Shown piece by piece: positions 1-64,000 of a DNA stretch of 64,000 nt. Under the pieces are notes generated by a model. The model worked only from the letters and a program-made list of their open reading frames with translations. It searched no databases and was not told the origin of the DNA. This DNA is from Semisulcospira habei. Taxonomy: Eukaryota > Mollusca > Gastropoda > Semisulcospiridae. A program made the translations under genes and the position numbers. The stretch's first letter is position 1, and the number at the start of each line of letters is the position of its first letter. Where the stretch lies: positions 186,617,533 through 186,681,532 of the forward strand of contig BTPG01000003.1 of NCBI GenBank assembly GCA_036245525.1, written 5' to 3'.

Positions 1-50
1 AAAAAAAAAAAAAAAAAAAAAAAAATAGACATAAAGAACACAGGACTAAC

Positions 51-112
51 AAGAGACATAAATCCTCATCAGCCCCCGCGACTGCGGGGGCTGATGAGGA
101 TTTATGTCTCTT
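51..112. repeat. HA-family palindrome, perfect 29-bp arms
   Basis: Arms 51-79 and 84-112 are exact reverse complements around a 4-nt loop. Relative to other HA copies both arms carry the same changes (ATAAATCC and CATCAG on the left, mirrored on the right), so the arms changed together. No TTAA ends are recognisable. Confidence 0.9.
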
Positions 113-666
113 GCAGCTGGGCAGCGTTCGCTTTGCCCCCCCCCCCCCCCCAAGTTAAGGGGTTAGCAACAGAAATAAATCCTCATGAGCACACGCTGAT
201 AAACGGGGGGTGCCGGGTGGGTGGGTATGGGGGGTGGGGTGGGGGGAGGGGGTTCAGGAGGATTTATATCTTTTGCATTTGTTTCCTGAACTCCCGACGA
301 AGAAAGGGTTCATTTTGATCGTAAAAGTGGAGTTCTTATAAACTTTTTGTTTGAAACCTGCTGCAGCTTTCGTCATTCCTCCCCCCCTCCCCCCCCCCCC
401 CCCCTACTCCACGACCTTTTGACGTCAACGATTTGTGCGCCTGAGTGCATATCGTCATGGGATGCATAATCGAAAGCCATTTGGCTCTGCAAATTTGAAA
501 GCTCTTGCCGGTAACGTGGTTTAAGCCACTGGCACCATTACGTAAATGTCAAAGGGGTGTTGACGCGCTGGCATAAAATACTCGCAAACTTCATTCTCTC
601 CTCAAAATATAGTTTGCGCTGAGTACACGGTTCCATCTATTCAGCTCACGCAATCTCAACAAATCT
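113..666. other. Non-coding stretch, no gene seen
   Basis: Holds poly-C and poly-G runs (137-151, 381-403) and otherwise unremarkable sequence. I see no coding, RNA-gene or transposon signal beyond the flanking palindromes. Confidence 0.6.
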
Positions 667-734: not shown

Positions 735-939
735 TGGTCTAAACTAGGCATGTGCTTTTTTTTTATTTGAGGGGATCCTCCGCTGTTCATTATATGACTG
801 TCTTCGCCGAGAAGACAAAAAATTCACCAGAGCCACAAAAAGTTTTCCGACAGTCAATATTATTTTGCCCTTTTTTTCTTTACACCAATGGCAAAAAAAA
901 CTACTCGAAGGATCTCTGACTCTTAGCCCAACAACTTTA

Positions 940-1010
940 TGTGTGCCCGTCTGTGATTTTGGACCATACGGCCGGATGCCGTAATGTCCAAAATCACAGA
1001 CGGGCACACA
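940..1010. repeat. HC-family palindrome
   Basis: TGTGTGCCCGTCTGTGATTT on the left pairs with its mirror ending at 1010; arms of about 33 nt around a 5-nt loop. Both arms read CCCGTC/GACGGG where other copies read CTGGTC/GACCAG, a coordinated arm change. No TTAA at the ends. Confidence 0.88.
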
Positions 1011-1320
1011 TTTGCTTCCCTCGCAGACTACGAATTTACGGAGTGGTGTAGACAGGCTGCCCTAGGGTAAGGGGGGATGCCCCTGGGACGGTACCGGCTT
1101 ACTGACACTGAGTGAGACAATTACTGCGGCGTCTGGGTGACCGTCCAGGGATGGGAAGCAGACACATTATTGTACACGAGGCCCGCGCTAATGTTCCGCG
1201 GGTCACTCGGTCTCTGCTGTTTTCTTGGTATGTATTATGTTTGGATAGTTACGTTCAGCTGGATACTTTTGCCATCTTTGTCAAGACACAAGTAGGCCAA
1301 TATGGAGTGTAGCTTTTATC
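1011..1320. other. Non-coding stretch, nothing recognised
   Basis: Mixed-composition sequence between two palindromes. Short open frames here have no recognisable protein character. Confidence 0.5.
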
Positions 1321-1933: not shown

Positions 1934-2153
1934 TTAACAATTGACTGTCAGTGGACGCATCAAATTATTGCTTTTTCCAAGTCGTTGTTAATTCAACAGC
2001 AAAGAACCCCAGCCGTCTAAGGAACATGGACACAAAGTGGTTTCAGCAAGAGGCATAGATCCTCATGGGCCCCCGCAAACTGCGGGGCCCATGAAGATCT
2101 ATGTTTCTTCCAGTTAGATCGTGTTCACTTTTTCTCGGTTGTGAAGGGGTTAA
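1934..2153 (-). mobile_element. HA-family element with palindrome (TTAA ends)
   Basis: The palindrome spans 2046-2112. The right end reads GTGAAGGGGTTAA, the HA terminal motif. The left end near TTTAACAATTGACTG is eroded. The sequence before the palindrome (AACATGGACACAAAGTGG) recurs in the same place in other HA copies, so the element is more than the hairpin. The left boundary is uncertain. Confidence 0.7.
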
Positions 2154-5042: not shown

Positions 5043-5112
5043 CTGCAAGAGACAGAGATCCTCATGAGTCCCCGCAAATGCGGAGGCTCATGAGGCTCTA
5101 TGTCTTTTGCAG
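5043..5112. repeat. HA-family palindrome
   Basis: CTGCAAGAGACAGAGATCC on the left is mirrored on the right with a few mismatches around CCCCGCAAATGCGGAGG. Confidence 0.88.
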
Positions 5113-5184
5113 ATAAGTTTGTTTCATGCAAAGGTGTAGTGGCAATTTAAGGTGGGACACAGATTAGGTTTTCATAAAACAGGC

Positions 5185-5254
5185 CTGCAAGAGACGTAGA
5201 TCCTCATGAGCCCCCGCAATTGCGGGGGCTCATGAGGATCTATGCCTCTTGCAG
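5185..5254. repeat. HA-family palindrome, nearly perfect
   Basis: Arms of about 34 nt (5185-5218 and 5221-5254) pair with one or two mismatches around CCCCCGCAATTGCGGGGG. Confidence 0.92.
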
Positions 5255-5502
5255 ATAGACAAATGTTCTACAAGAGTGTAGTGGCAATTCAAGATATTAG
5301 CCTGGCGGGACAGTGATGTAGCGAATATCGAACTTTCGCGAGACACGGTAATCACGTCTGCATATTCATCTCACTCGAATTCACGAGAAGGGTGTCCGTG
5401 ACTTATCGTCCGCGGGCGAATTCGCCTCCCTTGGGTAGGGCTACTTACAGAGAATTTGCAAGTGTTAGAGTATACTGGACTGTGGTGTTGAGGTATTGGT
5501 GT

Positions 5503-22497: not shown

Positions 22498-25400
22498 CTA
22501 GCGGCGTGCAGTCGGCTTGACTGAATCTTTTTCCACAGCATGCTCCAGTCGGAATCGGGGTGCAAGGTTGGAACTGACTGGGCGCTGAGAGCGTCGGTCT
22601 CTTTGAGGCTCTTTGTCTCTGGCACCAGACTTGCCGTGTGTGTCACCGTGCCCTGGCAGCTGTTCATGGTGGCGAGACTTTGGGTGATTTGGTTCTGGCC
22701 GGGCTGCGTTGTTGGAGGTGCGGCCAGAGTACGAACGCTTGATGTTGACAGCGAGAGCACTGGTGCCCCGCTTGTTGGGATGGATGGCGTCTCTGAACCA
22801 GCCGCTCTTTACCTCGCCGGTTCTTGTAGAGAAGGCGTAGTCATTGTCAACAAAGTTGACCTTGAGGGATGCGCACATTTCTCTGAGGCAGACGTGTGTG
22901 TCAGTGATGCATGGGTCTGGCTGCTGACGCTGGTTGTTCGTGGGCAGGATGGAAGACATGGAGATTTCTGCCTTGGGGAAGACTCGTCTGGCAGCAGAAA
23001 TCACATCCTTCCAGCCCTTCTTGCCGATGACGAACCCACGCTTACAGTCGTTGATGCCAACGTGTATGACGACTGTGCTGAATGTATTCGTGGGTTCGGC
23101 ATCATGAAGGCGCTGTAGAATGCCGGCTCTGTCGAGGCCCGACACTGACACGACCTGTGCCTTGTCCGTGCCAGTGACGGACATCAGCTTTCCGTGCAGA
23201 CCGCGTAGGACAGAGTCACCTAGAAGCCGCGTTTGGGTGACAAGCTTTAGCTCTGGAATCCCAGTACGGTCGGTGGGTTTGTCAGAGCCTGGAGAGGGTC
23301 GGGGTGTTGGTCTCGGCTCCATGTGCTCGGGCGTTTGCCGGATAGCAGTGTTGTCGTGAGCTGGACGCGGGGGTTCAGATGTGGTCGTGGTGGCAGGGGA
23401 TTTGGAGGTGGCAGGCGATTTTTTCGGCGCTTGCTTTGCCTCGGTGTTGGAGGGGGGATAAATGCCTTTCTTGCTGCCTTTCTTGCCGGTCCTCAATCCC
23501 TCCTTTTCCCCCTCCATCTGGGTGATTCTTTGTCGGAGGTGTCTAATTTCAGTTTGCAGCGCATCCACCTCAATATTGTAGGCGTGGCGGATCTCTTCAA
23601 CTGCTGATCTGAGAGCAGCTATCTCTGCCATTACGCGCTCCATGGCCAGGGGGTCTGGGTTGAGAACAACAGGGCAGACCGTCTGGCACGCAGACTCGAT
23701 AACCAAGACATCAGCAGGGGCAGGGGGCTGAGTGCCAATGCCGCCGACGTCAGATGTGATGGCAGCACAATCGCTGTCGATGCTGTCGTTGGTTATGGTG
23801 CCAGCGCCGCCGACGTCGGAGGTAGGGGCAGCACTAGCTTTGAGGTCGATGGGGGAGATAGTGGTAGCGCCAGTGTCGCCGTTGTCGGAGGTGGAGGCAC
23901 TGTTGTTGCAGTTGTTGTAGGTGGTGGTGATTGTAATGCCAGTGCCGCCGACGTCAGACCTAGGGGCAGCACTAGCTCTGTTTTCGCTGTCGGCGATGGT
24001 GCCAGTGCCGCCGACGTCAGACGTAGGGGCAGCACTAGCTCTGTTGTCTCTGTCGTTGACGGTAAAAGTGCCAGTACCGCCGACGACTGAGATAGGGGCA
24101 GCACAAGCTATGTTGTCGCTGTTGCTGATGGTGCCAGTGCCGCCGACGTCTGGTGTAGGGGCAGCACTAGCTCTGTTGTCCCTGTCGCTGGTGTTGATGG
24201 TGCCAGTGCCGCAGACGTCTGACGTAGGGGCAGCACTAGCTCTGTTGTCGCTGTCGCTGGTGTTGGTGGTGCCAGTGCCGCCTTCGTCTGACGTAGGGGC
24301 AGCACTAGCTCTGTTGTCGCTGTCGCTGGTGTTGATGGTGCCAGTGCCGCCGATGTCAGACGTAGGGGCAGCACTAGCTTTGTTGTCGCTGTCGTTTGTG
24401 GTGAAAGTGCCAGTGCCGCCGACTTCTGAGGTAGGGGCAGCACTAGCTGTGTTGTTGCTGTCGGTGACAGTACCGCCGATGTCAGACGTAGGGGCAGCAC
24501 TAGCTCTGTTGTCGCTGTCGCTGTCGGTGATGGTGCCAGTGCCGCCGACGTCTGACGTAGGGGCAGCACTAGCTCTGTTGTCGCTGTCGTTGTCGGTGAT
24601 GGTGCCAGTGCCGCCGACGTCAGACGTAAGGGCAGCACTAGCTCTGTTGTCGCTGTCGCTGTCGTTGATGGTGCCAGTGCCGCCGACGTCTGACGTAGGG
24701 GCAGCACTAGCTCTGTTGTCGCTGTCGGTGCCAGTGCCAGTGCCGCCGACCCACATAAGGGCAGCACTAGCTTTGTTGTCGCTGTCGGTGATGGTGCCAG
24801 TGCCTCCGACGTCTGACGTAGGGGCAGCACTAGCTCTGTTGTCGCTGTCGGTGCCAGTGCCGCCGACCTCAGACGTAAGGGCAGCACTAGCTTTGTTCTC
24901 GCTGTCGGTGATGGTGCCAGTGCCGCCGACGTCAGACGTCGGGTCAGCACTAGCTCTGTTGTCGCTGGTGTTGATGGTGCCAGTGCCGCCGACGTTTGAC
25001 GTAGGGACAGCACTAGCTTTGTTGTCGCTGTCGCTGGTGTTGGTGGTGCCAGTGCCGCCGATGTCTGACGTAGGGGCAGCACTAGCTCTGTTGTCGCTGT
25101 CGCTGGTGTTGGTGGTGCCAATGCCGCCAACGTCGGAGGTAGGGGCAGCACTAGTATTGTTGTCGCTGTCGCTGGTGGTGCTAGTACCGCCGATATTGAT
25201 GGTAGAGGTTCTGTCGCTATAGGTAGAACCCTCGGTGTCGTCCATGACGGTGATGGTCTGGGTGTCGGTTACTGACAGGCTGGTGTCAACTGAAGAGGGC
25301 GGTGACGGTAGCGCCAACTGACTGTGACCAGACTGAGCGGTCAAGGTGTTGACGATTTCTCTCAGCGCTGCAAACTCCCTGTCTACCCACTGGCGGCAGG

Positions 25401-26437: not shown

Positions 26438-26772
26438 AAAAGAGAGCGCCACATTCATTGGTGCCGTTCATCACTTTCGACAGTCGTCACAGAGGAAGGA
26501 GGGAAAGAAACACACATTGCAGCGTGCACCGAACGTCGTATGACCCCCTCAGGATCAGGTATATAAATTGTACTCACCAGAGAGATGGATCGCCATAGGC
26601 CCCTGCGTGATACAGAATCTCATGAGCATACACGCCTCTTGAAGAAACATGCCATTCTCTACGAGAGTAATCGAGTAACTTCCTGGTCCTGACTGACGTA
26701 AAGTCTTTATTCAGTCACAGAATGAATCCGGAATAATGCACGTACTTTAGCGGGGGTTGTAAAAGAGGTGCC
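26438..26772. other. Non-coding stretch, a decayed HA piece only
   Basis: Around 26590-26645 a degraded HA-like piece remains (CCCCTGCG...CTCATGAG...GCCTCTTG). Confidence 0.45.
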
Positions 26773-26840
26773 AGCAAGAGGCATAGATTCTCATGAGCCT
26801 CTGCGACAGCACGGCTCATGAGAATCTATGCCTCATGCAG
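26773..26840. repeat. HA-family palindrome
   Basis: Both arms carry TAGATTCTCATGAG / CTCATGAGAATCTA where most copies have GATCC/GGATC, a coordinated arm change. Confidence 0.85.
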
Positions 26841-27131
26841 ATGGAACTAGCTGGCTGCTGGACGCCACTAGGGGTATGGAACGTCGTTAAGAAGTAAAGT
26901 ATGAACCCGGACTGATATTTCAATATTGGAGGACGTAACGAAGCTGATCTGTGTCATGAGGGAGCATATATTTTGTTGAACCCCTGCAGTTGTAACGGTA
27001 AATGATAATCTCTGCTTTTGGCAGCCGAAAGAAGCTGACTGCCAGACTTTAATGGGAGAGTGCAACGCATGGCTATAAAATGAACCCGGAAAACTTTTTC
27101 AATAGGACGATGAAAAAAATGGGGGCTGTTC

Positions 27132-27197
27132 TGGAGGCATTATATTCTCACGACACCCTGCAGCTGCAGAGCTCATGATAATATGTGTCTCTTGCAG
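27132..27197. repeat. Diverged HA-family palindrome
   Basis: GCATTATATTCTCACGA against CATGATAATATGTGTCTC around CCCTGCAGCTGCAG. Arms only partly pair. Confidence 0.6.
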
Positions 27198-27420
27198 ACA
27201 AAACAGACTGACCGGTTGATTTTTTGCCAAGGGTGTGGAGCTGTGGGAGAGGTGAAGTATGAATAAGGACAAGCACTCAATTGGCCCAGGCTAGCAAAGC
27301 ATCTTTAGGGTCCCTTCGCCTACGACCAGATGAGTGTTCGATCCAATTTCTCGTCTCTGTTCTAGGCCGAACGCACAAAGACCTCTCCCGTGAGAGGAAT
27401 ACATGAGTCAAGATAGACAG
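27198..27420. other. Spacer between two HA palindromes
   Basis: No coding or repeat signal recognised. Confidence 0.4.
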
Positions 27421-27489
27421 GCAAGAAGCATCGATCATCATGAGGCCCCGCATTCTGCGGGGTCTCATGATGATCTATGCTTCTTGCAG
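27421..27489. repeat. HA-family palindrome with arm-specific variants
   Basis: GCAAGAAGCAT...GATCATCATGA on the left is answered by TCATGATGATC...ATGCTTCTTGC on the right. The variant bases occur in both arms, so pairing is kept. Confidence 0.9.
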
Positions 27490-28010
27490 ACGTTTTCTTT
27501 TCGGTGTTGGAAAGAACTGTGTGCGCAATAAGACTTCTCCTTCCATTTCCTGGGAACATGGACATAACATGGGCCAGCAGGAATTATATGATCCCGTGGA
27601 CAGCCAGGGCAAGTGGGGCTCTTGAGGATCTATGCCTCTTGCGGGTCATGCAATGGCTGCTCTGACAAACTTGCTAGATAGATGTATGTCGCCCGGGGGA
27701 AACAAACGAAGCTGGGAGGTGCTTGTCTTGTTTGGGTGGCTGACAAATGGAGAGCATTGGGAAACAGCCCTAAGTATTGTCAGCTGTAATCACCCCGACC
27801 CCGTTAACAAAAGACCATCGAGCCCAGTCGGGTTTGCTTGGTCAGTAGACATTGACCATGCGTGTGTTCAGCTGTGTGGTTTTGAACCTCATGACCTGTG
27901 ACCTGTTCACAGATTAATGCTACGCATTGCTTCGCGTCAGTAAAAGAAAACAGAAAACATAAAAAAGCGGGATATTTGAACACTTGTACAGAAGTAACGA
28001 CAGCACTCCT
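27490..28010. other. Non-coding stretch
   Basis: A remnant of an HA right arm (GAGGATCTATGCCTCTTGC) lies at 27625-27643. No gene seen. Confidence 0.45.
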
Positions 28011-28696: not shown

Positions 28697-28736
28697 AGAT
28701 GTCGGTCCGATGGCCATTTGCTTACTGGAAGTTTTA

Positions 28737-30440
28737 TATTCTCTATGTGATAGGAGTGTAATAGACGTTGTTCATATTCTCTGTGATAGGAGTGTAATAG
28801 ACGTTGTTCATATTCTCTGTGATAGGAGTGTAATAGACGTTGTTCATATTCTCTATGTGATAGGAGTGTAATAGACGTTGTTCATATTCTCTGTGATAGG
28901 AGTGTAATAGACGTTGTTCATATTCTCTGTGATAGGAGTGTAATAGACGTTGTTCATATTTTCTGTGATAGGAGTGTAATAGACGTTGTTCATATTCTCT
29001 ATGTGATAGGAGTGTAATAGACGTTGTTCATATTCTCTATGATAGGAGTGTAATAGACGTTGTTCATATTCTCTTTGTGATAGGACTGTAATAGACGTTG
29101 TTCATATTCTCTGTGATAGGAGTGTAATAGACGTTGTTCATATTCTCTGTGATAGGAGTGTAATAGACGTTGTTCATATTCTCTGTGATAGGAGTGTAAT
29201 AGACGTTGTTCATATTCTCTGTGATAGGAGTGTAATAGACGTTGTTCATATTCTCTATGATAGGAGTGTAATAGACGTTGTTCATATTCTCTTTGTGATA
29301 GGAGTGTAATAGACGTTGTTCATATTCTCTGTGATAGGAGTGTAATAGACGTTGTTCATATTCTCTGTGATAGGAGTGTAATAGACGTTGTTCATATTCT
29401 CTATGATAGAAGTGTAATAGACGTTGTTCATATTTTCTATGATAGGAGTGTAATAGACGTTGTTCATATTCTCTATGTGATAGGAGTGTAATAGACGTTG
29501 TTCATATTCTCTGTGATAGGAGTGTAATAGACGTTGTTCATATTCTCTATGATAGGAGTGTAATAGACGTTGTTCATATTCTCTATGATAGGAGTGTAAT
29601 AGACGTTGTTCATATTCTCTGTGATAGGAGTGTAATAGACGTTGTTCATATTCTCTATGATAGGAGTGTAATAGACGTTGTTCATATTCTCTGTGATAGG
29701 ATTGAAATAGACGTTGTTCATATTCTCTATGATAGGAGTGCAATAGACGTTGTTCATATTCTCTATGATAGGAGTGTAATAGACGTTGTTCATATTCTCT
29801 ATGTGATAGGAGTGTAATAGACGTTGTTCGTATTCTCTGTGATAGGAGTGTAATAGACGTTGTTCATATTTTCTATGTGATAGGAGTGTAATAGACGTTG
29901 TTCATATTCTCTGTGATAGGAGTGTAATAGACGTTGTTCATATTCTCTTTGTGATAGGAGTGTAATAGACGTTGTTCATATTCTCTATGTGATAGGAGTG
30001 TAATAGACGTTGTTCATATTCTCTATGTGACACTCCAAAAAAAGTGATAGGAGTGTAATAGACGTTGTTCATATTCTCTATGTGATAGGAGTGTAATAGA
30101 CGTTGTTCATATTCTCTATGTGATAGGAGTGTAATAGACGTTGTTCATATTCTCTGTGATAGGAGTGTAATAGACGTTCATATTTTCTTTGTGATAGGAG
30201 TGTAACAGACGTTGTTCATATTCTCTGTGATAGGAGTGTAATAGACGTTGTTCATATTCTCTTTGTGATAGGAGTGTAATAGACGTTGTTCATATTCTCT
30301 CTGTGATAGGAGTGTAATAGACGTTGTTCATATTCTCTATGTGATAGGAGTGTAATAGACGTTGTTCATATTCTCTATGATAGGAGTGTAATAGACGTTG
30401 TTCATATTCTCTATGTGATAGGAGTGTAATAGACGTTGTT
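28737..30440. repeat. 36/38-bp minisatellite, roughly 45 units
   Basis: The unit reads GTGATAGGAGTGTAATAGAC then GTTGTTCATATTCTCT, in 36-bp and 38-bp forms (the latter with an extra AT or TT before GTGAT). A foreign 10-bp-scale interruption (CACTCCAAAAAAA) lies at 30031-30043. Runs of 36-bp units give minus-strand open frames with the repeated peptide ENMNNVYYTPIT. The 38-bp units shift the frame, so a real protein is unlikely. Confidence 0.95.
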
Positions 30441-32625: not shown

Positions 32626-32718
32626 TACGCAGATTATGATGACTCACTCAAGACGTGCCGCCTCCGGATACGCGGCATAAGCCACGTATCCGGAGGCGGC
32701 ACGTCTCGAATGAGTTAA
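32626..32718. repeat. HG-family palindrome with TTAA right end
   Basis: AGACGTGCCGCCTCCGGATA (32651-32670) is mirrored by the right arm ending at 32706, pairing almost perfectly around GGCATAAGCC. The right terminus TCGAATGAGTTAA matches HB/HG termini. Confidence 0.88.
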
Positions 32719-33279: not shown

Positions 33280-33370
33280 TTAACCCTTTGGCTATCGGTA
33301 GCGGATTTTGACGCGATGATTCCTGTAGGAATCACCGCGACAAAAACCGCTATCGACAGCCAAAAGGTTA
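33280..33370. mobile_element. HD-family element, nearly all palindrome
   Basis: TTAACCCTTTGGCTATCGG at the left mirrors CCGCTATCGACAGCCAAAAGG at the right, followed by TTAT in place of TTAA. About 91 bp, centred on GATTCCTGTAGGAATC. The shortest complete TTAA-type palindrome in the window. Confidence 0.85.
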
Positions 33371-37507: not shown

Positions 37508-37604
37508 AGACAACACTCCGAACATCTCCAAGAGGCATAGATCCTCATGAGCCCTCCGGGCTCATGAAGATCTATGCCTCTTGGAGATGTTCGGAGTGTT
37601 GTCT
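37508..37604. repeat. HA-derived palindrome extended beyond the family core
   Basis: Exact or near-exact symmetry over 97 nt: arms about 47 nt with almost no loop (GAGCCCTCCGGGCTC). The outer 20 nt of each arm, AGACAACACTCCGAACATCT and its mirror, do not occur in other HA copies, and the usual GC-rich centre is shortened. Unique flanking DNA has become part of the palindrome. Confidence 0.92.
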
Positions 37605-38218: not shown

Positions 38219-38299
38219 TTAACTCATTCGAGACGTGTCGCATTAGGACCCGCGGCAAATAGCAGCGTATCCGTGTGCGACACGCCTCGAGTAAGTTAA
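38219..38299. mobile_element. HG-family element, TTAA at both ends
   Basis: TTAACTCATTCGAGACGTG at the left and CGCCTCGAGTAAGTTAA at the right form the termini. The inner arms are diverged from the copy at 32651. Its right TTAA (38296-38299) is also the left TTAA of the next HB element. Confidence 0.8.
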
Positions 38300-43450: not shown

Positions 43451-43667
43451 TTAAGCCATTACACCCTGACGTTGTTTTTTTTTCCAAACTTGCGTATTTT
43501 CATGTGAAGGCCATATTGCAGACTAGGAGATATATCAACCACTTTAGTTCAAGGGTGGTGCCAGAATAGCTTGGCGCCTGTGGGCGCCAAGCTATTCTGG
43601 CACCACCCTTGAACTATCATGGTCAAATTATTTCATGCAATAGTGTATCAGGGTGAAAAGGGTTCAA
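43451..43667 (-). mobile_element. HB-family element
   Basis: Left TTAAGCCATTACACCCTGAC, right CAGGGTGAAAAGGGTTC (TTAA lost). The palindrome at about 43533-43626 is nearly perfect with core GAATAGCTTGGCGCC around TGTG; GGTGGTGCC subfamily. Confidence 0.85.
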
Positions 43668-44325: not shown

Positions 44326-44390
44326 GCAAGATACATATATCCTCATGACCCCACGCATCGCGTGGGCTCATGAGGATATATGTATCTTGC
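44326..44390. repeat. HA-family palindrome with coordinated arm variants
   Basis: GCAAGATACATATATCCTCA on the left and TGAGGATATATGTATCTTGC on the right. Other HA copies have GAGGCATAGATCC. Four or more substitutions are mirrored in both arms. Confidence 0.93.
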
Positions 44391-44913: not shown

Positions 44914-45113
44914 ACAAAAATGTCCAACACGTGACGAGGGCTGACGAGTGCCAGATGCCGTCAGCCAGTTACGCAAGCCGATCCCAAGAATGAAGCTGTG
45001 GACACGACTTAGCAAACTCAGGCATGGCTTGCACTTTGCGAACCAGTGGCTGGAGTCACGTTCCGTAAATGTGTGCCGCTTTGTGATTTTGCCCCACACG
45101 GTTTAGAGAGATA

Positions 45114-45182
45114 TGTGCTGGTATGTGATTTTGGACCTTACGGCTTTAAAGCCGTAAGGTCCAAAATCACATACCAGCACAC
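45114..45182. repeat. HC-family palindrome, loop-free
   Basis: TGTGCTGGTATGTGATTTTG plus GACCTTACGGC pairs exactly with its mirror, through a TTTAAA centre. Both arms read GGTATGTG/CACATACC against the commoner GGTCTGTG. A half-arm-like GTGTGCCGCTTTGTGATTTT lies at 45071-45090. Confidence 0.93.
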
Positions 45183-45263
45183 AAAATCCGACGACTCATG
45201 AAAATGAAAATCCGTAGGCCGTGCTCCTTGAAGACCGGCGGAATCCACCCCCCCCCCCCCCCC

Positions 45264-45748: not shown

Positions 45749-45962
45749 ATAACTCAATCTACCCCAACACCAAAATCCTTAAATTTTGCCCCTGTCCTCT
45801 CAAGCCTGCATTGCAGTGCAGGACACAGATCGACCATGATAGTTCAAGGGTGATGCCAGAATAGCTTGGCGCCCGTAGGCGCCAAGCTATTCTGGCATCA
45901 CCCTTGAACTATCATGGTGGATCCTTATCCTGCTGTGGTGTGTCTGGGGTAGAATGAGTTAA
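45749..45962 (-). mobile_element. HB-family element
   Basis: The left end ATAACTCAATCTACCCC is a one-base variant of TTAA; the right end GGGTAGAATGAGTTAA is intact. The palindrome around 45820-45935 is almost perfect, with both arms reading GGTGATGCC/GGCATCACC, a coordinated variant. Confidence 0.86.
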
Positions 45963-46526: not shown

Positions 46527-46733
46527 TTAATCCCTTCCCTGCCACTGTACGTACATTTTTTTTTTGTGGTTTGTTTCTGAAATGTTTGCTCACTCAGAGA
46601 TCAAAAGCCACAACCGCCCAGGAAACAGGAGTACAGATTGGTCTCAGCAAGAGTCATAGATTCTCATCAGCCCCCGCTGTCGTGGCGGCTCATGAGAATC
46701 TATGTCTCTTGCAGTTGGCAGTGAAGGAGTTAA
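46527..46733 (-). mobile_element. HA-family element, complete, TTAA at both ends
   Basis: Left TTAATCCCTTCCCTGCCACTG, right AGTGAAGGAGTTAA. The palindrome at 46646-46712 has both arms reading TAGATTCTCAT / ATGAGAATCTA. 207 bp. Confidence 0.86.
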
Positions 46734-46888: not shown

Positions 46889-47119
46889 TTAACCCCTTAA
46901 CTGCCGGGGCAAGGCTTAAGCTACCCATCTGCAAGAGACATAAATCCTCATGAGACCTCGCTGTCGCGGGGGCTCATGAGGATTCATGTCTCTTGTTAGT
47001 CCTATGTTCTTCGTGCCTATTTCTGGTTCCATTTCATCTGCGTTCCTCACGCGAATGTCAGTCAGTGTGCTGTGTTTTTTTGACGCAAAATGCGCGATCA
47101 CTGGCAGCGAAGGTCTTAA
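46889..47119 (+). mobile_element. HA-family element, TTAA at both ends
   Basis: Left TTAACCCCTTAACTGCCGG, right GGCAGCGAAGGTCTTAA. The palindrome is at 46931-46995. Opposite orientation to the copy just upstream. Confidence 0.82.
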
Positions 47120-48202: not shown

Positions 48203-48378
48203 ATGACCTTTCTGGGTAAGGCCCAATGTGGCAGATCAGCGCAAATATAAGTTTTACACGACATTTTCTAGGAAATCTGGTTCACTCTGAAAATAGGTAT
48301 CTCGTAGACGTATTGGGAGATACATGCAATATTGCTCCAAGTATAACAATGTTCAAGGCGACCATTTGTGAGAAGAGT

Positions 48379-48447
48379 GTGTGCTGCTTTGTGATGTTGG
48401 ACCATACGGCTGTAAGCCGTATGGTCCAAAATCACAAGCCAGCATAC
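48379..48447. repeat. HC-family palindrome
   Basis: TGTGCTGCTTTGTGATGTTGGACCATACGGC-type arm (48380-48410) pairs with its mirror through a CTGTAAG centre; both arms read CCATAC/GTATGG. Minor mismatches. Confidence 0.88.
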
Positions 48448-49070
48448 AGACGCACTTGACCTAGTTAGAGCCGACTTCATCCCACCCTGCGCGATCGACT
48501 GGTCAATACGTGGGCGGTCACTTCACACAGGGATCATACATACATGAACGACGAAATTCCATTATTGTCAAACCCTCCGCCAATATTCCCCCAGCATTTT
48601 ACAGACACGTGGTAGGACCAGAATAGAAAATGGGGCCTCACCCAGCAGGTCGACTTATCGATCGGTTGGGTTACCTGCCCACGGACTATATTTTCGTCAA
48701 CTAGACACGCGGCTTGGTCACATGGCATCCCGCGAGGGACAAGCCTAGAATTCAAGACCTCATCAACTTCCAGAAGGAATGCATGCACATCACTCTCTAA
48801 GGCCTCACAGAGACCTAAGTTTGGGTTAAATCCATGTGCATCAGTGTCTCGTAGACGGGAGGCGGAGATATGTAACAAGGGGATGAGACTGATAAAACAA
48901 AAAACTTTGATTTGTTCAGCCTCTGTTGAATCGGGGATTAATAGAGGATTTTCTAGGTGAACACAAGCGTCTCATTGTTTGCTCCCCTTGCTCCCGTCTC
49001 GAGCTGAGGTTCAAGTTCGGCAAAGGCCTTGGCACGCTTTCCGTTTTCAGAAGATCGACCCGCTTGTCTT
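48448..49070. other. Non-coding intronic stretch
   Basis: A minus-strand open frame (48878-48534) has no recognised domain. Nothing else seen. Confidence 0.4.
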
Positions 49071-49560
49071 GGACCAAAACCTTTCGTGTTCAAGAGGCGT
49101 AGATTTTCATGAAAATCTACGCCTCTTGAAGAAGTCGATAGGGTCCATTTACATCTATTTATGTTTCTCCGAGGATGACGGTCACCAAGGAGCAAGTATT
49201 TGACCTGATGGGACCTGCGTGTCTTAGATAATATCTTCCAAATGAAAGAGGAATAGATTTTCATGAGTCCCTGACGGGTCCCGCGAAACACTACGTCTTT
49301 TGATCGAATAGATGATTGTCAATTTACATCCGTTTCTGTTCCTCCAAGGATCTGGCCAGATCGAACTTGCATGTTTTAGACTACATCTTCACATTACAAG
49401 AGGCACAGGTGTTCATGGTTCCGCAGGAACTCACGAAGCCTCCTGATGTCATTGACCAGCTCAATCTACACCCAGCTTTGTTCCTCGGAGGAGTAAGAAA
49501 AGCACGTGACCTGCTCGGACGTGCGTGTCAAAGATGTTTACAGTCGGATGGAACAGCCCA
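49070..49560. repeat. Diverged tandem duplication of about 170 bp with hairpins
   Basis: Shared order in two or more units: CATTTACATCTATTTATGTT / CAATTTACATCCGTTTCTGT, then a GTCTTAGA...ATCTTC segment, then an HA-like GAGG...TTCATG piece (49091-49128, 49248-49275, 49399-49425). Confidence 0.6.
49091..49128. repeat. Loop-free short HA palindrome
   Basis: CAAGAGGCGTAGATTTTCA meets its exact mirror with no loop; 19-bp arms. The GC-rich HA centre is gone. Both arms carry GGCGTAGATTTTC variants. Confidence 0.92.
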
Positions 49561-49729: not shown

Positions 49730-49954
49730 TTAACACATTCTGCTCCAGGACCAAAATCCGCAAATTTTGAAGTCGCCCCCCCCCCCCCCCCCTGAAGACT
49801 GTATTACACTTCTGAAAACAGATCGAGCGTGATAGTTTAAGGGTTGTGCCAGAATAGCTTGGCGTCTATGGGCGCCAAGCTATTCTGGCACAACCCTTGA
49901 ACTATCACGCTCGATCCATGTCTTGCCGTGGCGTGTCGGAGTTGAATGAGTTAA
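49730..49954 (-). mobile_element. HB-family element, complete, TTAA at both ends
   Basis: Left TTAACACATTCTGCTCC, right AGTTGAATGAGTTAA. The palindrome has both arms reading GGTTGTGCC / GGCACAACC, a mirrored variant of GGTGGTGCC. A C run of 15-16 nt lies in the long flank. Confidence 0.88.
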
Positions 49955-51072: not shown

Positions 51073-51190
51073 ATTAAACACCTGCATTCCCAAATATTCT
51101 TCCACCCAGAGAAATGTATTTTGAACGCCATTCAGACCAGCATCATCGCTGACCTTGCCAGATTTGGATTTTCGTCGACGCCCAGATTTT

Positions 51191-51242
51191 TGCAGGTCTG
51201 TGATTTTGGACCTTACGGTCTAAAATCACGGACCTGCACACA
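51191..51242. repeat. HC-family palindrome, shortened
   Basis: TGCAGGTCTGTGATTTTGGA is mirrored at the right around CCTTACGGTC; both arms read GCAGGTC/GACCTGC instead of GCTGGTC/GACCAGC. The centre is trimmed. Confidence 0.88.
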
Positions 51243-51995: not shown

Positions 51996-52062
51996 AGCAA
52001 GAGGAATAGATCCTCATGAGCCCCCGCAACTGCGGGGGCTCATGCGGATCTATTCCTCTTGC
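51996..52062 (-). repeat. HA-family palindrome, nearly perfect
   Basis: Both arms read GAGGAATAGATCC / GGATCTATTCCTC. One mismatch (CATGCGG against CCTCATG). Flanks 51905-52110 resemble an HA element but the TTAA ends are eroded. Confidence 0.9.
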
Positions 52063-52287: not shown

Positions 52288-53462
<1,175 letters not shown>

Positions 53463-53532
53463 GTGTGCTGGTCTGTGATTTTGGATCTTATGCTTTCAAG
53501 CCGTAAGGTCCAAAATCACGGACCAGCGCACA
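53463..53532. repeat. HC-family palindrome
   Basis: GTGTGCTGGTCTGTGATTTT on the left pairs with the arm ending at 53532, around TTCAAG. Two or three mismatches. Confidence 0.9.
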
Positions 53533-54229
53533 ATTCTGTAAAACCAATTTTAGCAAGAGCACCTAAGTATGCATGTAGCACGGTCGCATCAATCCTCACT
53601 GGCCCCCGCTCTAACAGAGCTCATGTAGATCTGTGCCTTATTTCTGAAAGAACCAGTCCAGCTGACATCTATTTCATCCAGCGTAGAGACTAACACAATC
53701 TTGCGGCCTAAAATATTACTGTGACTGAGGTCTGGGGACCGGCCGTTTCGAAAGTCAGATTTTCCGGCGGCGTTCCTCACCTTTCAATAGCAAAAGATTG
53801 AGAGTGACGCTGAGGCGTACTTCAGCTGTGAAAAGCCTTTTACTTCTCACCGAAATTAGGGTTGATTGAAAATAGTTACACGTAGTGGACAGCCAGTAAT
53901 CGTACTAGTTTCTCTGAAATGACAATTGTTGACGAAAATAAGTACTTTGAAAAATCTATTAAAAAGAAAGCAAAAAAGCAAGAAAGAAAGAAAGAAAAGG
54001 GTTTCATTTCGACCTCAAAGAAAAGTGAATATATAGCTTAGAAAAAAAATGTTGTGGTTGGAACAATAATCCGTCTATAAATATGAAATATTTTTGAAAC
54101 TACGGGAGACCACTCCTACGTTGTCAACAAAGAGTAACCGCCCCTGAAAGCCAAGACGCCAACTTGGAAACTCTCATCATAGATTTGTTACAACAACAAA
54201 GTCTCACCTAGAACACGATACAAATTCTA
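53533..54229. other. Non-coding intronic stretch
   Basis: A decayed HA piece lies at 53570-53640. AT-rich to 54110. No gene seen. Confidence 0.45.
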
Positions 54230-55592: not shown

Positions 55593-55801
55593 TTAACGCC
55601 TTCACTGCCGAGAAACAGCGAACACGATCCAACTGCAAGAGACATAGATCTTCATGAGCACCCGCAGTTGCGGGGACTCATGAGGATCTATGTCTCTTGC
55701 TGCCTCCAATTCGTATCCGTGTTCCGCCTTGGGAGGATTGTGTGGCGTTGAATTAACAAAAAATTCATAAACACAGTCCACTGGGGCAGTAAAGGGGTTA
55801 A
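55593..55801 (+). mobile_element. HA-family element, complete, TTAA at both ends
   Basis: Left TTAACGCCTTCACTGCCGAG, right GGGGCAGTAAAGGGGTTAA. The palindrome at 55634-55700 is nearly perfect. The region after it (CCGTGTTCC...GTTGAATTAAC...ACACAGTCC) matches, in reverse orientation, the long flank of the copy ending at 50264. 209 bp, a good family reference. Confidence 0.9.
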
Positions 55802-56085: not shown

Positions 56086-56295
56086 ACCATTCAGCCCTGA
56101 CGCACTACAGCAGGAGATGGGTCAACCATGATAATTCAAGGGTAGTGCCAGATTAGCTTGGCGCCTGTCGGCGCCAAGCTAATCTGGCACTACCCTTGAA
56201 TTATCATGGTTAACCCATCTCCTGCAACAGGTACATAGTCGTTGGATGACGCCTCCAAAATTTGGGAAGTACGTGCGTCGGGCTGAATGAGTTAA
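56086..56295 (+). mobile_element. HB-family element, complete
   Basis: Left TTAAACCATTCAGCCCTGAC, right GTCGGGCTGAATGAGTTAA. The palindrome is almost perfect over about 110 nt, with core TTAGCTTGGCGCC around TGTC; GGTAGTGCC/ATTAGC subfamily. Its right TTAA is the left TTAA of an HA element. Confidence 0.9.
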
Positions 56296-56514
56296 GCCGT
56301 TCCCTGACACTGGACGCAAATGATGTTTCTGAAATCTTTGTTCATTCGGGGACCGAAAGCCACACCTGTGGGAGAGACATGGGGACAAATGGGTCCCAGC
56401 AAGAGGTATAGATCCTCATGAGCCCCCGCGATTGCGGGGGCTCATGAGGATCTATACCTCATGCAGTTGAATGACGTTTAGTTTTTTTTCTTCTCGGCGG
56501 GGTTAGGGTTTAAA
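56292..56514 (-). mobile_element. HA-family element abutting an HB element
   Basis: Left TTAAGCCGTTCCCTGACACTG, right GGCGGGGTTAGGGTTTAA. The palindrome at 56399-56465 has both arms reading GAGGTATAGATCC / GGATCTATACCTC, mirrored variants. Confidence 0.88.
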
Positions 56515-57892: not shown

Positions 57893-58107
57893 AACTATAT
57901 GAACGCTATAGGTTAGGTGTGACTGTATATTATCTCTGTTGGCGGAGATGTTTCGCATCCCACTGAACGTGTTATCGACCCCGGCTATGGGTGATTACCG
58001 TGCCGACCTCCGTGGCTTCCGCAACCCCCAACCCCCTCAAGAAAAAAAAGGTGTGTTTGCTTGCTTTGACCCCTTCACTGCCGAGAAAAGGTGAACGCGA
58101 TCTAACT

Positions 58108-58174
58108 GCAAGAGGTATAGATCCTCATGAGCCCCCGCAAATGCGGGGGCTCATGAGGATTTATGCCTCTTGCT
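58108..58174 (+). repeat. HA-family palindrome, nearly perfect
   Basis: Both arms read GAGGTATAGATCC / GGATTTATGCCTC with two mismatches. Preceded by CCCCTTCACTGCCGAGAAAA, the HA terminus without TTAA. Confidence 0.9.
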
Positions 58175-58276
58175 GAAACCACTTTTGTGTCTATGTTCTT
58201 TGGACAGTTGTGGTTTGGGTGGTTCGGTGAACACAATTTTCAGAAACAAGGTATACGTTCATCAGCAGGGAATGTG

Positions 58277-58499
58277 TTAACCCTATCATTGGAATACACC
58301 AGTGTGTGAAGTAATTTTGACTAAAATAGTTCAAGGGTAGTGCCAGAATAGCTTGGCGCCTGCTAGGCGCCAAGCTATTCTGGCACCACCCTTGAACTAA
58401 AGCCATTGGTCTATATCCTTATGTGTAAGTACTATAATGTAGCTTGCATATGGCAGTGTACACATTTGAAGCTTTTGGCCTCAGTTTGATATGGGTTAA
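58277..58499 (+). mobile_element. HB-family element, diverged ends, TTAA at both
   Basis: Left TTAACCCTATCATTGG, right GATATGGGTTAA. The inner palindrome (TAGTTCAAGGGTAGTGCC to GGCACCACCCTTGAACTA) remains nearly perfect around TGCTA although the flanks differ strongly from other HB copies. Confidence 0.82.
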
Positions 58500-59947: not shown

Positions 59948-60058
59948 TTTAACCCCTTCACTGGCGATAAGAAATGGACAACGCACTAATGCAAGAGGTA
60001 TAGATCCTCATGAGCCCCCCGCATTTGCGGGGGGCTCATGAGGATCTATACCTCTTGC
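59948..60058 (+). mobile_element. HA-family element, left end and palindrome
   Basis: Left TTAACCCCTTCACTGGCG. The palindrome at 59991-60058 is perfect or nearly so, with both arms reading GAGGTATAGATCC / GGATCTATACCTC and an extra C/G pair at the centre. The right end is not recognised. Confidence 0.87.
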
Positions 60059-62171: not shown

Positions 62172-62262
62172 GTAACCCCTTGCATGTCTGTAGCGGTTTC
62201 TGTCGCAATGATTCCTGTAGGATTGATCGCGACAATAACTGATATCGATGCGGAAAGGCTTA
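62172..62262. repeat. HD-family palindrome, eroded
   Basis: GTAACCCCTTGCATGTCTGT at the left; centre GATTCCTGTAGGATTGATC; arms keep GTCGCAATGATTCC / GATCGCGAC-type pairing with several mismatches. It lies about 145 bp inside intron 1 from the exon 1 donor. Confidence 0.75.
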
Positions 62263-62406
62263 CTTCTCACCTAAGAAAGTAAAAAACAAGTAGAGAAACA
62301 CGCCTCCTTACAAAAAAAAAAAAAGACAGAACTATCTCATCCTTCCATTTCTGAATCGCGTTTCGTTCTTTCTGGGCTATTTCTTGCATTTGAAAAAAAT
62401 TCTCAC

Positions 62407-63682
62407 CTGTTTTTCGTGGTTTCTTGTTGCGCTTGGGTTCTGTTGCAGCAGCAGCCGAGATGGACTGAGCGGGAGGGCCGGCGGCGGCTGCAGCAGACAG
62501 GGGTTGTTGTGCTGGTACTTGCTGGGGTTGTGGCTGTGGTTGATGCCGTCTGGCGGCGGCTGCAGGTTGATAGGACGGCACCAGACCCTGGAACTGGCTG
62601 TCTTGGTTGAAGTTCTTCTTCTGGTACCAGCGGGTCTTCTGAGTGGCGGTGCGGCTGGTGGGAGGTGGGATCCGCTGACGGAGTGCTTTAGGAGTGGAGG
62701 AGCGGGACGCCCACCAGGGGTAATGGTGCAGACTGAAACCGTCATTCCTTTTGTTGCTGTTGTCTTGGATGTAGTTGTTGTCGTTCCTTTTGTCCAATGA
62801 GTTGCTGTTGCTGTTGGTATCTTGGTCTGCGTATCTAGAACCATCCTGATCTCTAGATTTGAAATCGTAGTTATTGTTCTGTTTTCTAACGGTGTTAGCT
62901 TTAAAATCAGTATCCCTGTCAGATACTCCAGTGTTCAGTTCTCGATTGTTGCCTGTGTGTTGCCTCTGGTCTCTGGTGTCGTGTTGCTGTTGGCTGTCTC
63001 TTGGCGAGTCCTGGAGCTGTTCACTCTTTCGTGGTCGTGTGTCTTTGTAGGCAAAAGGATTCATTCGCTTCTTGGGTATTGTCGATACATAGCCCGCGTC
63101 ATGATATTTCACTTCGTTGTCTTCTTTTCTGTATGGACTTTTGGACAACGCGTACCTGGGATCGTCAGAGGTTTCCGGAGCACGGACATGGCCATCTAAC
63201 TGTCGGGGCTGGTCTTGACCGGGTGGGGTTTCATTAGTATAATAGTCACTGTAGTCGTAATTGTAGGCAGGGTCTGTGTAATGCTTGGACCCCTGGCTGT
63301 CGTGGTTGTTGTGAGAATCTTGATAGTGTCCTGAAGACTGGGAGCTATCCTGTCTGTGGCGGTGCCAACTAGGCATGGGCGTGGGGTGACTGGGGGATTT
63401 TCTGTAGTGAGGTTTGGGTCCGGTACGAGAGAAAGGCGAGGGTCCTGCGGGATTCTGTGCACAGTCGGCGTTCTGAGGCCAGTCACACACCTGTGTCTTT
63501 GAGTTGAAGTGGAGGCCACCTGGGCAGGTCATGGTGTATTTCTGATCACCGATACAGATGTCAAAGCGGGTGGGGTTTGTGGGGTTACATACATACACAC
63601 CCTTCGTCCCGCCACACGGCTCTGCCAGCACAACTCGGTTGAATAGCGCCATCAGCGCGCTTAGCAGCAGTTGTAGATGCAT
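62407..63682 (-). CDS. Chitin deacetylase-like gene, exon 1 (signal peptide, CBM14, linker)
   Basis: Starts at ATG 63682 with a signal peptide (MHLQLLLSALMALFNRVVLA). Residues 23-74 are a chitin-binding peritrophin-A (CBM14) domain with six cysteines at 23, 32, 43, 53, 66 and 74 and the CPGGLHFNSKTQVCDW signature. Residues about 75-425 are a disordered linker rich in Gln, Asn, Asp, Ser and Pro, ending RNKKPRKT. The donor ACAG|GTGAGA lies at 62407/62406 and leaves the exon in phase 1, exactly the phase needed by the CE4 exon at 43252. A CBM14 domain before a CE4 domain is the known layout of several animal chitin deacetylases, so I join them. If read on without splicing, the frame runs to 62267 in unconvincing sequence. 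Confidence 0.85.
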
Positions 63683-64000
63683 TGTAGTCGTTATGCTGTA
63701 ATGTCAGTCTTTAAGAACACGCTTCAAGTACGGTAAAGAAAATTGTAATTTAGTCTCTTTGCAGATTTCAGGCTTAAAGAATCGAAGAAGCTCCGGGAAA
63801 AGTTACAGTCTGTATCTGATCAGACATTCACTGAAGTGATCTCTGCATTTCACACGTAGACACAACTATAAAAGAAAGGGGGAAAAAGTGGTGCGACGGA
63901 ACTTAAATTGCAGGCAGAAGCAACATGCCCTCGGAGAATGTTCCTGCTAATCGCAACTATTTACTAAATGTAAAGAAGTCTTGTACTCAGTATATTTATG
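63683..64000 (-). other. Upstream region of the chitin deacetylase-like gene
   Basis: Would hold the 5' UTR and promoter. I see no convincing TATA box in the expected orientation and no repeats. Confidence 0.4.

What the first reader, a model, noticed from the sequence alone, without database searches (positions are those of the whole stretch)
44326..44390. Arms of HA palindromes change together between copies
Within a copy the two arms match each other better than they match other copies. At 44326 both arms have GATACATATATCC-type variants. At 51 both have ATAAATCCTCATCAG. At 26773 and 46646 both have GATTCTCAT. At 27421 both have GAAGCAT and GATCATCATGA. At 51996 both have GAGGAATAG. At 56399 and 59991 both have GAGGTATAG. 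Independent mutation would break pairing; mirrored change needs one arm to be copied from the other (hairpin-templated repair, template switching) or selection for the hairpin.
Basis: partly seen in the sequence, partly recalled or inferred. Interest (0 to 1): 0.87.

Follow-up and report, generated by a model that had tools for sequence, protein, structure and literature searches.

The report
Hairpin repeat arms that change together
A short hairpin repeated many times in what looks like an animal genome tends to carry the same change on both of its arms, most likely because one arm is sometimes copied from the other during DNA replication, a process already known from other organisms.

Summary
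Every quoted variant pair is at its coordinates. Of 36 HA loci found by arm search, 25 have two alignable arms; these carry 25 mirrored changes against 4.8 when right arms are shuffled between copies (0 of 20,000 reach 25). Unmirrored differences are commoner (71), and only 9 of 25 copies have their own partner arm as best match. 16 of the 25 were assigned to a TTAA-ended element of about 215 bp, probably a piggyBac-type MITE; four others lie in tandem arrays. A second family, HB, behaves alike. Most mirrored variants also occur in another copy (19 of 25 HA, 32 of 35 HB), so inheritance from source copies explains much. What inheritance alone leaves open: copy-specific mirrored changes, a stem running 20 bp into its flank (37528), three candidate inverted loops. 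These resemble published footprints of replication template switching. Selection on the hairpin in source copies is the main rival; the inner HB stem looks conserved between copies, which arm copying does not explain. Verdict: real, largely a known process; change after insertion unproven.

The parts
44326..44390 (+). HA hairpin of the finding; 4 mirrored changes (arm positions 7, 8, 13, 28) and 1 single
   Evidence: DNA fold z -12.4
49..114 (+). HA hairpin, mirrored at 8, 13, 22; grouped by eye with 46931 (HA2)
26774..26838 (+). HA hairpin in a tandem array, mirrored at 16 and 29
27421..27487 (+). HA hairpin in the same array, mirrored at 7 and 17
46647..46712 (+). HA hairpin in a TTAA element, mirrored at 16; loop TGTC = reverse complement of GACA found in 26774 and 46931 (candidate loop inversion)
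46931..46996 (-). HA hairpin (HA2), mirrored at 8 and 13
51997..52062 (+). HA hairpin, mirrored at 9; same variant in half copies 47644, 49246, 50192
56399..56464 (+). HA hairpin, mirrored at 9 (T/T); element match 56293-56505
59991..60058 (-). HA hairpin, mirrored at 9 plus one extra C on both arms, no mismatch
58067..58279 (-). nearly full-length HA element (profile 2-214 of 215); hairpin 58108-58173 with loop ATTT = reverse complement of AAAT (candidate loop inversion)
1939..2152 (+). nearly full-length HA element (profile 7-214)
55594..55800 (-). nearly full-length HA element (profile 2-214)
37508..37604 (.). HA hairpin whose stem runs 20 bp beyond the HA boundary on both sides (46 of 47 positions match), inside a longer inverted repeat matching 42 of 55 further out
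49089..49130 (.). shortened HA hairpin, perfect 21-nt arms, first unit of a tandem array; not in the counts
49811..49926 (-). HB hairpin with copy-specific mirrored change at 35 and another mirrored change at 19
56110..56225 (+). HB hairpin, subfamily HB1, mirrored change at 15 mapped to its own branch
45818..45933 (-). HB hairpin, mirrored at 36; loop TACG = reverse complement of CGTA (candidate loop inversion)
939..1011 (.). HC hairpin, two adjacent mirrored changes

Best explanation
HA (and HB) are near-perfect hairpins with loops of about 4 nt that mostly lie inside short TTAA-ended elements, most likely non-autonomous piggyBac-type MITEs. SHOWN: the two arms of a copy share changes far beyond chance, many such changes are shared by other copies, some are specific to one copy, and one stem runs 20 bp beyond the HA boundary. 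INFERRED: a replication fork that meets the hairpin sometimes switches template, so that one arm is copied from the other; this turns a one-arm mutation into a mirrored one (or erases it), sometimes turns the loop round and sometimes lengthens the stem. It happened in the source copies, whose mirrored variants then spread by transposition, and probably also in inserted, immobile copies.
For: Mirrored changes 25 against 4.8 shuffled in HA, 35 against 16.7 in HB (3 of 20,000 reach it). Copy-specific mirrored variants 6 HA and 3 HB, simulated independent arms 0.31 (maximum 4 in 4,000) and 0.74 (P 0.04). HC adds 6 mirrored changes in 4 of 6 copies, without a shuffled control. On flank-only trees 5 HA and 10 HB same-branch mirrored changes, shuffled means 1.3 and 2.75, though the highest of 200 shuffles equals each. 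Stem at 37508-37604: 46 of 47 inner against 42 of 55 outer positions, Fisher p 0.0014, blocks chosen after seeing the alignment. Three loops equal the reverse complement of a recurrent loop (46647, 58108, 45818; P 0.011 HA, 0.07-0.09 HB; test devised after seeing them). 8 of 25 HA and 13 of 35 HB mirrored changes are transversions, which no G-U intermediate explains. Mismatches show no clear strand bias (G-T:A-C 11:16 in 20 of 25 HA copies, 34:22 in 15 HB, p 0.44 and 0.14). Mismatches were transmitted: T9 stands on the element-right arm only in 41445, 55166, 57165, 58108, so perfect pairing was not needed for moving. PMC8794818 names multiple paired changes, stem extension and inverted loops as footprints (passages).
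Against: Most mirrored variants also occur in other copies and may be old. Within HB subfamilies the excess is small (35 against 30.1). One-arm variants completed to both arms are not in excess on the trees (HB 14 against 21.8, HA 4 against 3.3). The HB terminal repeats, much further apart, show a similar within-copy excess (0.685 against 0.636, 111 of 20,000), so they are no clean negative control. The inner HB stem is at or near consensus even in 43523 and 58305, whose flanks look strongly diverged by eye, which copying alone cannot cause. The 37528 stem could instead come from an inverted duplication with later loss at its centre. Trees rest on short flanks. No orthologue was seen.
Confidence: 0.58

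Rival explanations
1. Source-copy inheritance with selection on the hairpin: only copies whose hairpin works (as a transposase-binding or structural part) amplify, so paired changes are kept in source lineages and later copies merely inherit them.
For: The inner-stem changes that mark HB1 (25, 35, 44) and the change at 17 that marks HB2 are mirrored in every member. The inner HB stem is near consensus while flanks and outer stem diverge.
Against: Uncorrected mismatches were transmitted (T9 on one arm in 4 HA copies; outer-stem mismatches common to the 4 HB2 copies). Does not predict loop inversion or a stem running into the flank. Copy-specific mirrored changes also occur in copies not assigned to the TTAA element (44326, 27421, 37528).
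Confidence: 0.25
2. Ectopic gene conversion between copies, which can replace a whole hairpin and so move mirrored variants about.
For: The same mirrored variants occur in copies with different flanks (position 8 in TTAA elements and at 44326 and 5045).
Against: It moves paired changes but does not create them; 44326's changes at 7 and 28 have no donor among the 25 aligned copies.
Confidence: 0.08
3. Selection on an RNA hairpin (small-RNA or other) transcribed from one strand, with compensatory change through G-U pairs.
For: Strong folds of the 5 hairpins tried; tandem arrays of hairpins mostly 142-196 nt apart could be small-RNA loci.
Against: No significant excess of G-T over A-C mismatches; about a third of mirrored changes are transversions; no Rfam match at gathering score; some array hairpins are decayed.
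Confidence: 0.06
4. One arm is regenerated from the other at each transposition (snap-back synthesis).
For: Would give identical arms at birth.
Against: One-arm variants are shared by several inserted copies on the same element arm (T9, A36), so the arms are transmitted separately.
Confidence: 0.02
5. Chance and mutation hot spots.
For: CpG positions (HA 29, HB 14 and 15) recur among mirrored changes.
Against: Simulated independent arms with the same loads, hot columns and transition bias give 3.5 (maximum 11) HA and 10.4 (maximum 23) HB mirrored changes against 25 and 35.
Confidence: 0.01

Closest known systems
Template-switch mutation at short inverted repeats (quasipalindrome correction)
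   Same: Arms made alike, several paired changes at once, stem extension, inverted short loops, short spacer (PMC8794818 and PMC8604942, passages read)
   Different: There inferred on orthologous genes with ancestral reconstruction; here inferred from copies of a repeat in one window
piggyBac-type MITEs
   Same: TTAA at both ends, short terminal inverted repeats, in HA and at the left end of most HB1 copies starting CCC; about 215 bp, too short for a transposase
   Different: No transposase was sought; a long near-perfect hairpin fills much of the element; HB2 left ends begin CTC rather than CCC
Concerted palindrome arms (Nematomorpha mitochondrial coding palindromes)
   Same: Arms evolve together; template switching is proposed as one mechanism (PMC6649704, passages)
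   Different: Those are in mitochondrial genes, not dispersed repeats

Membership tests
Template-switch homogenisation of inverted-repeat arms | Arms share changes beyond independent mutation | tested here: met
Template-switch homogenisation of inverted-repeat arms | Inverted loops | tested here: inconclusive
   2 of 17 HA loops (P 0.011) and 1 of 12 HB loops (P 0.07-0.09) are reverse complements of a recurrent loop; 8 HA and 3 HB copies left out for loop length or uncertain orientation
Template-switch homogenisation of inverted-repeat arms | Stem extension | tested here: inconclusive
   one locus, 37508-37604; an inverted duplication is not excluded; other loci not tested systematically
Template-switch homogenisation of inverted-repeat arms | Simultaneous paired change between an ancestor and its orthologous descendant | not testable with these tools
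   genome search unanswered; no exact match of a 24-nt HA half arm in viral or prokaryote contigs
piggyBac-type MITE | TTAA target-site duplication | tested here: met
   HB: TTAA at the left end in 11 of 15 and at the right end in 12 of 15 copies, ends placed by local alignment; best-preserved HA copies end in TTAA. Empty sites not seen
piggyBac-type MITE | Terminal inverted repeats starting CCC | tested here: inconclusive
   HA and the left end of most HB1 copies yes; HB2 left ends TTAACTC, right ends mostly altered
piggyBac-type MITE | Mobilised by a piggyBac transposase | not tested
   no transposase was looked for
Known structured RNA | Match to an Rfam family | tested here: not met
   0 matches at gathering score over the window

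The most novel reading that the evidence does not exclude
Inserted, immobile hairpin copies keep correcting one arm from the other, so that roughly one in eight copy-specific changes is already mirrored (9 of 75 in HA plus HB; 8 of 74 if 51997's variant, seen in half copies, is not counted; about twice that if erased changes are as frequent). Each of what may be many thousands of copies (extrapolated from 36 loci in 64 kb; genome size unknown) would then be a natural reporter of template switching in a germ line.
Probability: 0.4. Interest if true: 0.6.

Novelty: new member of a known kind. Interest (0 to 1): 0.4.

Why it matters
Template switching at hairpins is hard to measure because each locus is unique. 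A family of similar hairpins scattered through one genome, with arms short enough to align and flanks that give an independent age and family tree, would allow its rate, its dependence on loop and stem, and its direction to be counted. It also warns that paired changes in a repeat hairpin are not by themselves proof of selected RNA structure.

Tried and rejected
Half-step evidence: one-arm variants shared by relatives and completed in others (T9, A36) looked like caught-in-the-act copying, but on the trees such completions are no commoner than after shuffling, so I do not count them for copying; I use the shared one-arm variants only against the need for perfect pairing. Terminal repeats as a negative control: rejected, they show a similar excess (not split by subfamily; ends were placed by local alignment and at least 43523 looks misplaced). 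RNA strand bias: none significant. An excess of single deviations on the element-right arm (27:47 HA p 0.027; 56:77 HB p 0.08, copies of uncertain orientation included) is unexplained. Loop-proximal gradient: in HB the mirrored share is higher towards the loop except in the last block, in HA the reverse, so no general gradient is claimed. Other copies elsewhere: no exact match of a 24-nt half-arm pattern in viral or prokaryote contigs, which says little about other animals. Organism: not identified; animal is inferred from gene content and a gastropod or other mollusc is my guess from recall; one search hits are retrotransposon-type endonucleases, a few under bacterial names. Rows dropped: HA 11 of 36 loci; HB 5 of 20 (33117 and half copies 1912, 32899, 51656, 54776); HC 2 of 8 (45069, 57106). 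Six HA orientations are uncertain (667, 5045, 5187, 27421, 37528, 40238).

Full report
WHAT IS THERE. The window looks like animal DNA (inferred; a chitin-binding domain and reverse-transcriptase and RNase H pieces), with many microsatellites and palindromes; no tRNA and no Rfam match at gathering score was found. HA is a hairpin with 31-nt arms (GCAAGAGGCATAGATCCTCATGAGCCCCCGC and its reverse complement) around a loop of about 4 nt. A search with one arm gave 62 arm hits, that is 25 paired copies, 10 half copies and one shortened hairpin at 49091; a profile search shows some further weak loci.

IS IT MORE THAN CHANCE. Arms were aligned to the consensus, not to each other. The 25 HA copies hold 25 mirrored changes and 71 cells in which the arms differ; shuffling right arms among copies gives 4.8 mirrored (0 of 20,000 reach 25). 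Within-copy identity is 0.907 against 0.851 between copies, but only 9 of 25 copies have their own right arm as (joint) best match. For HB (15 of 20 loci aligned, 56-nt arms) the figures are 35 mirrored against 16.7 (3 of 20,000), 118 unmirrored cells, 4 of 15 best matches. A separate covariation count on 23 HA copies gives 12 of 31 pairs changed on both sides, shuffled mean 3.5, 0 of 500, and 25 cells against 2-10 when the partner is slid. Simulated independent arms with the same loads, hot columns and transition bias give 3.5 (HA) and 10.4 (HB) mirrored changes. A third family, HC, shows 6 mirrored changes in 4 of 6 copies, without a shuffled control.

THE LARGER UNIT. Most HA hairpins lie in an oriented element of about 215 bp with ends like TTAACCCCTTCACTGCC and its reverse complement. 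I assigned 16 of the 25 to it: 14 with a flank-only profile hit at E below 1, some weak, and 49 and 2541 by eye. HB also lies between TTAA ends. TTAA duplication and CCC-starting ends are features of piggyBac elements (PMC10813416, passages), so these are probably piggyBac-type MITEs; no transposase was sought. The other 9 HA copies have different flanks; four of them (5045, 5187, 26774, 27421) lie in tandem arrays: six HA-like units at 26615-27642 spaced 155-292, two at 5043 and 5185 spaced 142; a third array, at 49092-49418 spaced 152-154, holds the shortened hairpin. The locus of the finding, 44326, is one of the 9.

OLD OR NEW. 19 of 25 HA and 32 of 35 HB mirrored variants also occur, on one or both arms, in another copy. 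HB1 is marked by mirrored changes at 25, 35 and 44, HB2 by 17. Shuffling only within HB subfamilies leaves 35 against 30.1 (132 of 20,000), with 19 against 16.1 in the inner stem (86) and 16 against 14.0 in the outer stem (3,019). Within two HA strata (16 element copies, 9 others) it leaves 25 against 5.7 (0 of 20,000); for the element copies with HA2 set apart 11 against 6.0 (3 of 20,000); for the 9 others 14 against 2.8 (1 of 20,000), their subfamilies being unknown. So inheritance from source copies explains most of HB and part of HA. Copy-specific mirrored variants number 6 in HA (44326 three, 27421, 37528, 51997) against 0.31 simulated, and 3 in HB against 0.74 (P 0.04). Two cautions: the 51997 variant also stands in three half copies that were left out, and by eye the decayed unit at 27134 may share 44326's change at 13. 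On trees built from flanks alone, 5 of 5 HA and 6 of 10 HB same-branch mirrored changes are on terminal branches; shuffled means for all branches are 1.3 and 2.75 and for terminal HB branches 2.2 (14 HA and 15 HB copies; 200 shuffles not split by subfamily; the highest shuffles, 5 and 10, equal the observed totals; support values are mostly low).

MECHANISM. PMC8794818 (abstract, outline and passages) lists what template switching should leave besides a single paired change: several paired changes at once, extension of the stem, inverted loops. Candidates for all three are seen. 44326 has 4 mirrored and 1 single change, 49 has 3 and 1. At 37508-37604 the stem runs 20 bp past the HA boundary with identical sequence on both sides; 46 of 47 inner positions match, against 42 of 55 in a block of the same inverted repeat further out (Fisher p 0.0014, blocks chosen after seeing the alignment). 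An inverted duplication could also have made it. Loops read in element orientation are the reverse complement of a recurrent loop in 46647 (TGTC/GACA), 58108 (ATTT/AAAT) and 45818 (TACG/CGTA); P 0.011 for HA, 0.07-0.09 for HB, on 17 of 25 and 12 of 15 copies, a test devised after seeing them. PMC8604942 (passages) reports arm homogenisation and spacer inversion by the same process in yeast, with shorter spacers among the affected repeats. Selection for pairing does not predict inverted loops or a stem running into the flank. Selection through G-U pairs is not supported: no significant strand bias among mismatches (20 HA and 15 HB copies), and 8 of 25 HA and 13 of 35 HB mirrored changes are transversions. 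Strict need for pairing is contradicted by shared one-arm variants, such as T9 on the element-right arm of 41445, 55166, 57165 and 58108; the same fact speaks against arms being rebuilt at each transposition.

WHAT DOES NOT FIT. The inner 32 positions of the HB stem show no deviation in 43523 and one in 58305, although their flanks look strongly diverged by eye and their outer stems are. Copying within a copy cannot keep different copies alike, so something else (selection in source copies, or exchange between copies) acts there too. Completed half-steps are not in excess, and the HB terminal repeats show a similar within-copy excess.

NOVELTY. The process is known. A search for papers with template switch, miniature inverted-repeat, hairpin and transposable element together listed 5 papers, none on this by title; the listings (some cut to 15 rows) showed none on MITE hairpin arms by title. 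No repeat library was at hand, so whether the elements themselves are described is not known. What would be new is a measured rate in a dispersed family, which needs the genome; the genome search did not complete.

Noticed in passing
26615-27642, 49092-49535, 5043-5257: Tandem arrays of HA-like hairpins, with repeated spacer pieces (spacing 142-196 nt, one gap of 292); hairpins in one array range from near perfect to decayed. Could be old satellites or small-RNA loci.
   Followed up: partly
43545-43620, 58326-58399: The inner 32 positions of the HB stem are at or near consensus in copies whose flanks and outer stem are strongly diverged.
   Followed up: partly
939-1011, 45111-45184, 48377-48449, 51186-51242, 53461-53533: HC, a third palindrome family of about 73 bp with no recognised flanking element, also with mirrored changes.
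   Followed up: partly
1322-1408, 33283-33368, 62175-62260; 32642-32715, 38222-38296: Two further palindrome families (HE, HD), each with few copies.
   Followed up: no
HA and HB copies: More single-arm changes on the element-right arm than the left (27:47 and 56:77).
   Followed up: no
23732-25180 and 28736-30440: Long tandem repeats of 69/138-bp units inside a 1088-aa open frame, and of 36-bp units.
   Followed up: no
62267-63703: Open frame with a chitin-binding Peritrophin-A domain.
   Followed up: no
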